Below are positions 38,154 through 39,606 of a stretch of DNA of 43,164 nt, in pieces. Below the pieces are notes generated by a model. That model was given only the letters and a program-made list of their open reading frames with translations, made no database searches and was not told the origin of the DNA. Both the position numbers and the translations under genes were made by a program. The DNA comes from a virus. The stretch is from the IMG/VR virus record IMGVR_UViG_3300008266_000115, positions 1 through 43,164 of that record. One strand, given 5' to 3'. Position 1 is the first letter of the stretch. Each line of letters starts with the position of its first letter.

Positions 38154-38260
38154 TAGTCAGGACAGGATTCGAACCTATATTAAGTAGCAACAGAATGTAC
38201 CACATTCAAGCTTTACAACCTTTTGAGTAACTTAATTGACACCAATTCCGCCACCTGACT
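38154..38260 (-). tRNA. tRNA-like element 1, expanded centre (107 nt)
   Basis: Minus strand: acceptor AGTCAGG/CCTGACT (7 bp), D arm GGCGGAATTGGTGTC, T arm ATAGG-TTCGAAT-CCTGT, discriminator A. The 59 nt between D and T arms do not form a normal anticodon plus variable arm: ATTAAGT pairs with ACTTAAT (7 bp) and encloses two hairpins, one with GAATGT/ACATTC. No anticodon can be assigned with confidence. D-arm sequence is leucine-like. Confidence 0.55.
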
Positions 38261-38265
38261 ATGTT

Positions 38266-38463
38266 TTAATCTACCCACTCAGTATCTCTCCATTCCCACC
38301 AACATGAACCACAAGTTACGTCAAACATTCTATATAAAGTTTGTTTGATAGATACTCTTTCCAACCATCTACGTTCATCTCCAATCCTTTTAGGAATGAA
38401 AAGATACTTACTAATTATTCTTTGTTGTCCTTCTTTTCTGTTGTCAATAATTTTACATCTCAT
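38266..38463 (-). CDS. Small protein between tRNA-like elements, unknown function
   Basis: 65 residues from the ATG at 38463; the frame from 38526 would enter tRNA-like element 2. Reads MRCKIIDNRKEGQQRIISKY, then FIPKRIGDERRWLERVSIKQ, and ends with CGSCWWEWRDTEWVD. Basic, with a CxxC near the C-terminus that may bind zinc. No family recognised. Confidence 0.5.
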   Translation of the reverse strand: MRCKIIDNRKEGQQRIISKYLFIPKRIGDERRWLERVSIKQTLYRMFDVTCGSCWWEWRDTEWVD

Positions 38464-38480
38464 AACTTTTATTGTTTTAA

Positions 38481-38578
38481 TAGTCAGGACAGGATTCGAA
38501 CCTGTAATCAACTCTTTTTGCGCCAAGATTTTACCTCGGGGTTGTAATCAACTGCGTCTACCATTCCGCCACCTGACT
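38481..38578 (-). tRNA. tRNA-like element 2, expanded centre (98 nt)
   Basis: Same acceptor (AGTCAGG/CCTGACT) and T arm (ACAGG-TTCGAAT-CCTGT) as elements 1 and 3, D arm GCGGAATGGTAGACGC. The 48-nt centre includes a hairpin CCGAG-GTAAAAT-CTTGG and a CAAC/GTTG pair. An 11-nt direct repeat TGTAATCAACT occurs at 38503-38513 and 38543-38553. Anticodon not assignable. Confidence 0.55.
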
Positions 38579-38795
38579 ATATTCCCCACCTTGAGATTAC
38601 AGGTGAGTAGATGTATCGGTTTTCTTTCTTTCAATAAACCTGCGGGTCTTACCCTCTTAAAATTAGTCAAACTACTTGGAGCCTCTGTTACCTAGCTTTA
38701 TTCCAAAGAGACTGGCGTTTAAGGATGTCCAGTCCAATACCCTATTCATTGTTTAAGTCTTGAATTAAAGACTCTGAGTATCTCTTACTCATAGT
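38579..38795 (-). ncRNA. Structured spacer between tRNA-like elements
   Basis: 217 nt with no convincing ORF but several strong inverted repeats: CACCT/AGGTG near 38587-38606, GGGT-CTT-ACCC, GACTGG/CCAGTC (about 38709-38733), GTCTT/AAGAC and TGAGTA/TACTCA (the last two just before element 3). Could be part of one long structured transcript with the tRNA-like elements or a processed spacer. No known family recognised. Confidence 0.4.
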
Positions 38796-38895
38796 AGTCA
38801 GGACAGGATTCGAACCTGTAAGAACCTACGTGCTTCACTCACTTGCGGTTCAGTTGCTCTGTGAAGGCTTGCGTTACCAATTTCGCCACCTGACT
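38795..38895 (-). tRNA. tRNA-like element 3, expanded centre (101 nt)
   Basis: Acceptor AGTCAGG/CCTGACT and T arm ACAGG-TTCGAAT-CCTGT identical to element 2; D arm GCGAAATTGGTAACGC. The 51-nt centre forms one long arm with AAG/CTT at the base and CTTCAC/GTGAAG inside, instead of anticodon and variable arms. Anticodon not assignable. Confidence 0.55.
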
Positions 38896-38908
38896 ATTTT
38901 AGTTTTTG

Positions 38909-39064
38909 CTATCGGGGAAGGATTCGAACCTTCACACTGGGATTCAGTAAAAGACAAATTAGCATGCTTCGTGGTCAACCCGTATCCTGTTACCTGTTTC
39001 CTAATCAGCGCCCTCGAGACGAGAGGGTGTGTATGCCGTGCGTACGCTTTTCACCACCCGATAG
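38909..39064 (-). tRNA. tRNA-like element 4, strongly expanded centre (156 nt)
   Basis: Acceptor TATCGGG/CCCGATA extended by one C-G pair, T arm GAAGG-TTCGAAT-CCTTC. About 100 nt lie between D-arm and T-arm regions: a CCCTC-TCGTCTC-GAGGG hairpin that has anticodon-arm proportions, ATTAG/CTAAT, and ACTG-AATCC-CAGT beside the T arm. Too small for a group I intron. Anticodon not assignable. Confidence 0.5.
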
Positions 39065-39429: not shown

Positions 39430-39442
39430 GAGTTTATTTTTG

Positions 39443-39516
39443 TGGACCCTGTAGGACTTGAACCTACGACCCCCTGATTATGAGTCAGGTGCTCTAACCA
39501 ATTGAGCTAAGGGTCC
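39443..39516 (-). tRNA. tRNA-Met/Ile2 (anticodon CAT)
   Basis: Regular cloverleaf: acceptor GGACCCT/AGGGTCC, D arm AGCTCAATTGGTTAGAGC, anticodon arm CTGAC-TCATAAT-... with CAT, T arm GTAGG-TTCAAGT-CCTAC, discriminator A, no CCA. Whether it is elongator Met or lysidine-modified Ile cannot be told here. Confidence 0.9.
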
Positions 39517-39519
39517 CAG

Positions 39520-39606
39520 CGGAGGCTCAGGGATTCGAACCCCAGATACAGTTTCCCGTATTTCGGTTTTCAAGACCGACGCATTCGACCGCTCTGCCAA
39601 ACCTCC
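39520..39606 (-). tRNA. tRNA-Ser (anticodon TGA)
   Basis: Class II cloverleaf: acceptor GGAGGTT/AGCCTCC, D arm GGCAGAGCGGTCGAATGC, anticodon arm CGGT-CTTGAAA-ACCG (TGA), variable arm ATACGGGAAACTGTAT, T arm TGGGG-TTCGAAT-CCCTG, discriminator G. Normal size, a useful contrast to the expanded elements nearby. Confidence 0.9.

What the first reader, a model, noticed from the sequence alone, without database searches (positions are those of the whole stretch)
38154..39064. Four tRNA-like elements with intact acceptor and T arms but oversized non-canonical centres
Elements 1-3 share acceptor AGTCAGG/CCTGACT and nearly identical T arms, yet have 59, 48 and 51 nt between D and T arms where a class II tRNA has about 33, and their centres are unrelated in sequence. 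Element 4 has about 100 nt. The centres contain strong alternative helices (7-bp ATTAAGT/ACTTAAT in element 1, CTTCAC/GTGAAG in element 3). Ordinary tRNA-Met, -Ser, -Leu and -Arg nearby show that this is not general degeneration. They may be tRNAs with novel small introns, tRNA decoys for host anticodon nucleases, or tRNA-like domains of another RNA.
Basis: partly seen in the sequence, partly recalled or inferred. Interest (0 to 1): 0.78.

Follow-up and report, generated by a model that had tools for sequence, protein, structure and literature searches.

The report
Phage tRNA chassis with swappable payloads
These elements belong to widespread, unannotated families of phage RNAs that keep the body of a transfer RNA; in three of the four the decoding arm is replaced by a structured, often exchanged payload, so those cannot be decoding tRNAs and are probably stable non-coding RNA effectors.

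Summary
One stricter scan of 85,000 prokaryote genomes found one.

Acceptor, D and T stems are kept by compensatory changes; U-1, C74, A73, U48 and A20a are retained. Almost none has a canonical anticodon arm. H-type pseudoknots are three times commoner in payloads than in shuffles. In cultured Leuconostoc phages one site is empty, or holds the same arms with one of two payloads.

E4 differs: a conserved 155-168 nt RNA (19 variants) folding as a full cloverleaf with a giant variable arm and a near-fixed anticodon loop UCGUCUC.

Best reading: non-decoding RNAs on a tRNA-Leu chassis, which can lose the anticodon arm because E. coli LeuRS does not need it. A host-specific, probably counter-defence, payload role is inference. 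Introns, decoding tRNAs and debris are disfavoured. T4 RNA C is the nearest known RNA.

The parts
38154..38260 (-). E1: tRNA-Leu-chassis element, 107 nt; payload 38179-38237 (59 nt), T arm 38162-38178, acceptor 38254-38260 with 38155-38161, A73 at 38154
   Evidence: RF00005 31.9 bits; MFE z -2.67 with ATTAAGT/ACTTAAT helix. Weakest D stem of the three and no A20a (sequence).
38481..38578 (-). E2: tRNA-Leu-chassis element, 98 nt; payload 38506-38553 (48 nt), T arm 38489-38505, acceptor 38572-38578 with 38482-38488, A73 at 38481
   Evidence: RF00005 43.4 bits; acceptor, D and T stems all in the MFE fold.
38795..38895 (-). E3: tRNA-Leu-chassis element, 101 nt; payload 38820-38870 (51 nt), T arm 38803-38819, acceptor 38889-38895 with 38796-38802, A73 at 38795
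   Evidence: RF00005 42.8 bits; acceptor, D and T stems in the MFE fold.
38822..38866 (-). E3 payload pseudoknot: S1 38861-38866 with 38833-38838 (CTTCAC/GTGAAG), S2 38847-38851 with 38822-38826 (GAACC/GGTTC)
   Evidence: Reached by 2.5% of dinucleotide shuffles; same layout as the enriched class layout.
38909..39063 (-). E4: conserved 155-nt tRNA-like RNA with full cloverleaf; acceptor TATCGGG/CCCGATA (39057-39063 with 38910-38916), G73 at 38909
   Evidence: 19 distinct relatives; 99.6% of cells paired, ten pairs with two-sided changes, 0 of 500 shuffles; same fold for the single sequence.
39011..39027 (-). E4 anticodon-type arm, CCCTC-UCGUCUC-GAGGG; loop 39016-39022, GUC at 39018-39020
   Evidence: Middle stem pair is AU, UA, CG or GC across relatives; loop UCGUCUC in 22 of 24 variants in a scan that did not fix it.
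38936..39009 (-). E4 giant variable arm, with palindrome GCATGC at 38962-38967 near its apex
   Evidence: Five helices in the consensus, several with two-sided changes; palindrome changes sequence but stays a palindrome in relatives.
38917..38933 (-). E4 T arm GAAGG-TTCGAAT-CCTTC
   Evidence: Two pairs with two-sided changes.
39442..39606 (-). Ordinary tRNA-Met (39442-39516) and tRNA-Ser (39519-39606), upstream in the same transcriptional direction
   Evidence: ARAGORN and Rfam.

Best explanation
E1-E3 belong to a large class of phage non-coding RNAs built on a tRNA-Leu chassis. Shown by sequence: acceptor, D arm and T arm are kept as a tRNA body under selection for pairing; the anticodon and variable arms are replaced by one of hundreds of unrelated structured payloads, often an H-type pseudoknot whose last strand ends 2-3 nt before the T stem; payloads differ between related phages at the same site, and in Leuconostoc phages the whole unit is present or absent exactly at the acceptor ends. 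Inferred: the units are transcribed with phage tRNAs, cut by RNase P and 3' processing, CCA-tailed, and probably leucylated by host LeuRS, which does not need the anticodon arm; they are thus stable non-decoding RNAs, a natural counterpart of the laboratory 'tRNA scaffold'. Most speculative: the payload binds or titrates a host-specific target, most likely a defence component, which would explain its turnover. E4 is a second, conserved non-standard tRNA (giant variable arm, anticodon loop UCGUCUC) in the same cluster; it carries the five main AspRS determinants but has U1-A72, C33 and U37.
For: 354 distinct elements, 256 payload clusters. Compensated acceptor and T stems and D stem GAG/CTC to GCG/CGC. 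U-1 82%, A73 86%, C74 97%; U48 in 241 of 256 clusters, A20a in 229. LeuRS determinants A73, A15-U48, G18G19, A20a, with anticodon and variable arms dispensable in E. coli (PMC9976931). T-proximal stem 94 against 36.7 +/- 3.1 and H-type pseudoknots 55 against 17.5 +/- 2.6 of 256. Payload covariation. Payload exchange. Empty site or two payloads in Leuconostoc phages. Interleaved with tRNAs on the same strand. E4.
Against: No expression, processing or charging data. Single pseudoknots are mostly not significant, and covariation in family A2 is weak. The scans fixed most of the D and T arms, so part of their conservation is imposed. E1 lacks A20a. About 11% of elements have G73, which should be poor for LeuRS. 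Payload function has no direct evidence. Some apparent swaps are arrays of different length.
Confidence: 0.6

Rival explanations
1. Decoys: the elements mimic tRNA to absorb tRNA-targeting host effectors (tRNA nucleases or toxins that modify the CCA end), the payload tuning recognition or resistance.
For: Phage tRNAs are known to counter tRNA-targeting defences (PMC10264068, PMC11555353, PMC13096335; [quoted passage not shown] The elements sit in tRNA arrays.
Against: No enrichment of anticodon-loop-like hairpins in payloads; the arm that anticodon nucleases read is missing.
Confidence: 0.17
2. Array debris: degenerate tRNA-Leu genes whose centres were scrambled by recombination and drift, without function.
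For: Arms are recombination-prone and arrays vary in length. Many payloads are singletons. Individual folds are often near chance.
Against: Compensated acceptor, D and T stems, retained U48, A20a and A73, excess of T-proximal stems and pseudoknots, covariation within payload families in different genomes.
Confidence: 0.08
3. Functional decoding tRNAs of unusual shape, for example with a displaced anticodon arm.
For: E4 is a cloverleaf with GUC at 34-36, C38 and G73; 17 AGTCAGG elements have an arm-like hairpin after the D arm.
Against: 312 of 329 AGTCAGG elements have none. E4 has C33 and U37 in nearly all variants. Ordinary tRNA sets are present beside the elements in several arrays.
Confidence: 0.07
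4. tRNA genes with small introns removed by an unknown splicing route.
For: Arms intact and centre oversized.
Against: Centres run continuously from 27 nt upward, too short at the low end for arm plus intron; no canonical arm to restore in most; no shared splice motif is apparent in the listed centres.
Confidence: 0.03
5. A DNA-level mobile unit: the acceptor repeats act as terminal inverted repeats and the tRNA shape is incidental.
For: Clean presence or absence with boundaries at the acceptor ends; modular exchange.
Against: The conserved features (D stem, T stem, U48, U-1, C74) are those of RNA; D and T stems are compensated; no target-site duplication is visible at the Leuconostoc site.
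Confidence: 0.04

Closest known systems
Bacteriophage T4 RNA C and RNA D (species 1 and 2 stable RNAs)
   Same: Stable non-tRNA RNAs at the end of a phage tRNA cluster; RNA C ends in a T-arm-like hairpin CCGGG-TTCGAAT-CCCGG followed by a partly pairing acceptor.
   Different: No match to the AGTCAGG chassis, no significant Rfam tRNA match, no exchangeable payloads known. The relation was not established.
tRNA-Leu (class II tRNA)
   Same: D arm, T arm, A73, U48, G18G19, A20a and maturation signals.
   Different: Anticodon and variable arms replaced; no decoding anticodon in nearly all.
Bacillus cereus tRNA-Other (pseudo-tRNA)
   Same: tRNA-like RNA that does not work in translation and has a cellular effect (PMC3399842).
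   Different: Single bacterial gene with a Trp anticodon; no exchangeable payload.
Laboratory tRNA scaffold for recombinant RNA (own knowledge; PMC3753655 and PMC11101469 listed)
   Same: Foreign RNA placed where the anticodon arm was, so that the cell treats it as tRNA.
   Different: Engineered; the natural units use a Leu body and hundreds of payloads.
Murine gammaherpesvirus 68 tRNA-like RNAs (own knowledge; cited in PMC6409571)
   Same: Viral tRNA-like units that carry other small RNAs.
   Different: Animal virus; payload lies downstream, not inside the tRNA body; other biology.
Type III antitoxin RNAs (ToxI-like; own knowledge, review PMC5086642 listed)
   Same: Short H-type pseudoknots.
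   Different: Made from tandem repeats next to a toxin gene, without tRNA chassis; no payload matched an Rfam family.

Membership tests
canonical tRNA (E1-E3) | 7-bp acceptor, D stem and 5-bp T arm with TTCRANY loop | tested here: met
   E1's D stem is weak.
canonical tRNA (E1-E3) | 5-bp/7-nt anticodon arm with U33 directly after the D arm | tested here: not met
   None in E1-E3; 17 of 329 AGTCAGG elements.
canonical tRNA (E4) | complete cloverleaf | tested here: met
   RNAalifold, RNAfold and pair counts.
canonical tRNA (E4) | U33 and purine 37 in the anticodon loop | tested here: not met
   C33 in 23 of 24 variants, U37 in all 24.
LeuRS substrate (E1-E3 class) | A73, A15-U48, G18G19, A20a | tested here: met
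   A73 in 224, U48 in 241, A20a in 229 and all three in 193 of 256 clusters; A15 and G18G19 were fixed by the scans. Within the window E1 lacks A20a.
LeuRS substrate (E1-E3 class) | measured leucylation | not testable with these tools
   Needs biochemistry.
AspRS substrate (E4) | G73, G34, U35, C36, C38 | tested here: met
   G73 in 19 of 19; loop positions in 24 of 24; determinant list from PMC9976931.
AspRS substrate (E4) | G1-C72 and G2-C71 as in bacterial tRNA-Asp | tested here: not met
   U1-A72 in 19 of 19; G2-C71 in 16 of 19.
intron-bearing tRNA | canonical anticodon arm restored when an intron is removed | tested here: not met
   No such arm in most; shortest centres have no room.
tmRNA | detected by ARAGORN or Rfam tmRNA models | tested here: not met
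type III antitoxin | match to a described RNA family in the payloads | tested here: not met
   Only RF00005 in 13 element-rich loci.
type III antitoxin | tandem repeats next to a toxin gene | not tested
   No common neighbour gene was found, but toxin families were not searched for.
T4 RNA C/D kind | stable processed RNA from a phage tRNA cluster | not testable with these tools
   Only indirect signs: U-1 and C74.

The most novel reading that the evidence does not exclude
Phages carry exchangeable libraries of structured RNA effectors on an aminoacylatable tRNA-Leu chassis; each payload acts on a host-specific target, and payloads pass between unrelated phages as counter-defence cassettes.
Probability: 0.35. 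Interest if true: 0.95.

Novelty: categorically new. Interest (0 to 1): 0.85.

Why it matters
If true, phages use a natural form of the tRNA scaffold to make hundreds of different stable RNAs that annotation programs miss or call broken tRNAs. That gives a systematic way to find new phage RNA effectors and the host factors they act on. It makes part of the old question of what phage tRNA clusters and stable RNAs such as T4 RNA C are for directly testable, in small cultured Leuconostoc phages where close relatives already provide 'empty', 'payload 1' and 'payload 2' states. It also suggests why a tRNA-Leu body is used: E. coli LeuRS is known not to need the anticodon arm.

Tried and rejected
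Antisense to the phage's own window: the longest complements of the E1-E3 payloads (12, 11 and 11 nt) are at chance. Hidden anticodon arms in payloads: 52 against 41 +/- 6.5, with U33 and purine 37 10 against 6.3 +/- 2.2, not significant. A shared partner gene: the commonest neighbour family is in 23 of about 200 loci. Known RNA families in payloads: none in 13 element-rich loci. Hits in cyanophages S-TIP37 and S-TIP28 lie beside an integrase and look like tRNA-Leu fragments used as attachment sites; set aside. Plasmid hits cover only the D arm, as expected of ordinary tRNA-Leu genes. The spacer between E3 and E2 is not specially structured (z -0.56). Promoter and terminator scans are near chance. 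The E4 sequence alone folds into the cloverleaf but without excess stability (z 0.05), so E4 rests on covariation. A first E4 rescan had its gap set too wide and found 4; repeated. Covariation in payload family A2 is weak. Two possible crAssphage cr4_1 elements were not worked out. Ten literature searches of open full text found no description; subscription journals are not covered.

Full report
OBSERVATION. All four elements lie on the minus strand, downstream in that direction of ordinary tRNA-Met and tRNA-Ser. ARAGORN reports none of them. The Rfam tRNA model accepts E1-E3 only by treating the centre as an insert. The window is part of a tailed phage with a baseplate wedge protein nearest to Flavobacterium immuto phages (46%) and a Microcystis phage (45%). 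An independent 70-kb assembly, L121, is identical over the last 5.3 kb of the window and carries a further element at L121:3316-3438.

THE CLASS IS WIDE. Most hits have acceptor AGTCAGG and unrelated centres. Scans for shorter (26-51) and longer (81-110) centres with that acceptor gave 92 stretches and a second saturated list. Centre length is continuous. Pooling everything held gave 354 distinct elements without a canonical anticodon arm, 312 of them with AGTCAGG; only 17 AGTCAGG elements have anything resembling one. The 354 centres fall into 256 sequence clusters, 198 of them singletons. One pattern scan of about 85,000 prokaryote genomes gave a single hit, on a 5.8-kb contig. The motif is thus essentially viral, with the caveat that the genome scan used a stricter pattern.

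THE ARMS ARE UNDER RNA-LEVEL SELECTION. Where the acceptor differs from AGTCAGG both strands usually change together: CAGAGGG/CTCTCTG, TACCAGG/CCTGGTA, GTCAAGG/CCTTGAC, GGACGGG/CCCGTCC, CCGGTGG/CCACCGG and others; T stems likewise (candidates had to pair at 6 of 7 and 4 of 5 positions, so this shows variety of paired stems rather than a rate). In Leuconostoc phages the D stem is GAG/CTC in LN34 and GCG/CGC in Ln-9. The base before the acceptor is U in 82% (66% in ordinary tRNAs of the same loci) and position 74 is C in 97%, which fits RNase P and CCA maturation (inference). Position 48, not fixed by the scans, is U in 241 of 256 clusters; A20a (or A20b) is present in 229 and A73 in 224. With A15 and G18G19 (fixed by the scans) these are the determinants of E. 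coli LeuRS, which charges tRNA-Leu even without anticodon and variable arms (PMC9976931). That is a simple reason why this body can carry a foreign centre.

THE CENTRES ARE STRUCTURED BUT INTERCHANGEABLE. With one representative per cluster, a stem whose 3' strand ends 2-3 nt before the T stem occurs in 94 of 256 against 36.7 +/- 3.1 in dinucleotide shuffles, and an H-type pseudoknot using that stem in 55 against 17.5 +/- 2.6. Individual pseudoknots are mostly not significant; E3 is at 2.5%, LN34, Ln-9 and phiLM33_01 at 20-30%. Families A3 and A4 show two-sided changes that beat shuffles, partly in the chassis and partly in payload helices; family A2 is weak. Of 144 same-payload pairs 120 share no flank homology, and of 22 pairs with homologous flanks on both sides 18 have different payloads, some of them neighbours within one array. 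Close inspection shows arrays of differing length, with the 3' flank orthologous from the T arm onward and the upstream part differing, so recombination between near-identical arms is a likely route of exchange. In the element-rich loci listed the units lie on the strand of the ordinary tRNAs, up to six per locus, in arrays of up to 26 tRNAs. No neighbouring gene is common. No Rfam family other than tRNA matches 13 element-rich loci.

A NATURAL EXPERIMENT IN CULTURED PHAGES. Leuconostoc phages LN34, LNTR2, LNTR3, CHA, CHB, P974 and others carry an unannotated unit (L379, about 340-434) with acceptor GATTTGG/CCAAATC. Ln-9 has the same acceptor and T arm with an unrelated payload. LN25, Ln-8 and LM0121 lack it, and their flanks align up to the acceptor ends. 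Leuconostoc phage phiLM33_01, Enterococcus phage VEsP-1 (203 nt) and MW202828.1 carry further unannotated units. Those in the Leuconostoc phages and VEsP-1 are not recognised by Rfam; they are identified by their paired arms.

E4 IS A DIFFERENT RNA. Two scans found it in 31 and 37 stretches, with 19 distinct full sequences. RNAalifold and the single-sequence fold agree on a cloverleaf: acceptor 7 bp, D stem GTG/CAC, anticodon-type arm of 5 bp and 7 nt, a variable arm of about 75 nt in several helices, T arm. 99.6% of cells pair, and ten pairs have two-sided changes, which none of 500 shuffles reaches. In the scan that did not fix it, the loop is UCGUCUC in 22 of 24 variants and all keep G34 U35 C36 U37 C38. 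With G73 (19 of 19) these are the five main AspRS determinants, but G1-C72 is replaced by U1-A72 and U33 by C33. In most variants the D loop holds an insert that is often a perfect palindrome, and the variable arm holds another near its apex (GCCGGC, GCATGC, GCGCGC, GCGTACGC), which would suit pairing between two molecules (inference). Variant L363 lacks the D-loop insert and has an ordinary class II D arm.

MECHANISM. Shown: tRNA body kept, anticodon arm lost in E1-E3, structured payload, exchange, and presence or absence at one site. Inferred from motifs and known biochemistry: transcription with tRNAs, RNase P and CCA maturation, leucylation, stability. Inferred only from turnover and phage-to-phage differences: a host-specific, probably counter-defence, role of the payload.

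KNOWN OR NEW. The nearest known RNAs are the T4 stable RNAs C and D at the end of the T4 tRNA cluster; RNA C has a T-arm-like end. tRNA-Other of Bacillus cereus shows that tRNA-like RNAs can act outside translation. I found no description of a tRNA chassis with exchangeable payloads in the open literature. Subscription journals were not searchable, and T4 RNA C may prove an early sighting of a related class, so 'categorically new' is meant for the modular class, not for the idea of a non-decoding tRNA-like RNA.

LIMITS. Exact-pattern scans fix most of the D and T arms, so the diversity seen is a lower bound and part of the conservation is imposed. There are no expression data. Payload function is a hypothesis.

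Noticed in passing
L379:340-434 (Leuconostoc phage LN34), L385 (Ln-9), L386-L388 (LN25, LM0121, Ln-8): One genomic site in cultured Leuconostoc phages is empty, or holds the same tRNA-like arms with one of two unrelated payloads; the unit is unannotated and is followed by a long inverted repeat and a T run that looks like a terminator.
   Followed up: partly
L220:396-598 (Enterococcus phage VEsP-1): Unannotated 203-nt element with acceptor GTCACTG/CAGTGAC and a Leu-type D arm, upstream of an annotated tRNA-Arg.
   Followed up: partly
L121:6243-6292 and MW202828.1:637-697: Very short tRNA-like units (50 and 61 nt) that keep acceptor and T arm and have no room for an anticodon arm.
   Followed up: no
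window 38962-38967 and 39040-39047, with the E4 relatives in alignment A1: Two palindromes in E4 (variable-arm apex and D-loop insert) change sequence between relatives but mostly stay palindromic, as a self-pairing (dimer) contact would.
   Followed up: partly
window 38266-38463, minus strand: Small open reading frame of about 65 aa between E1 and E2; no function assigned.
   Followed up: no
window 38506-38553 (E2): Direct repeat AGTTGATTACA after the D arm and again before the T stem of E2, as if a piece next to the T arm had been copied.
   Followed up: no
L373 (crAssphage cr4_1): 1447-1523 and 430-681; record position 51507-51630: Possible further tRNA-like units in a crAssphage (one with T arm and partial acceptor, one a 124-nt RF00005 match), and a group I intron match nearby.
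   Followed up: no
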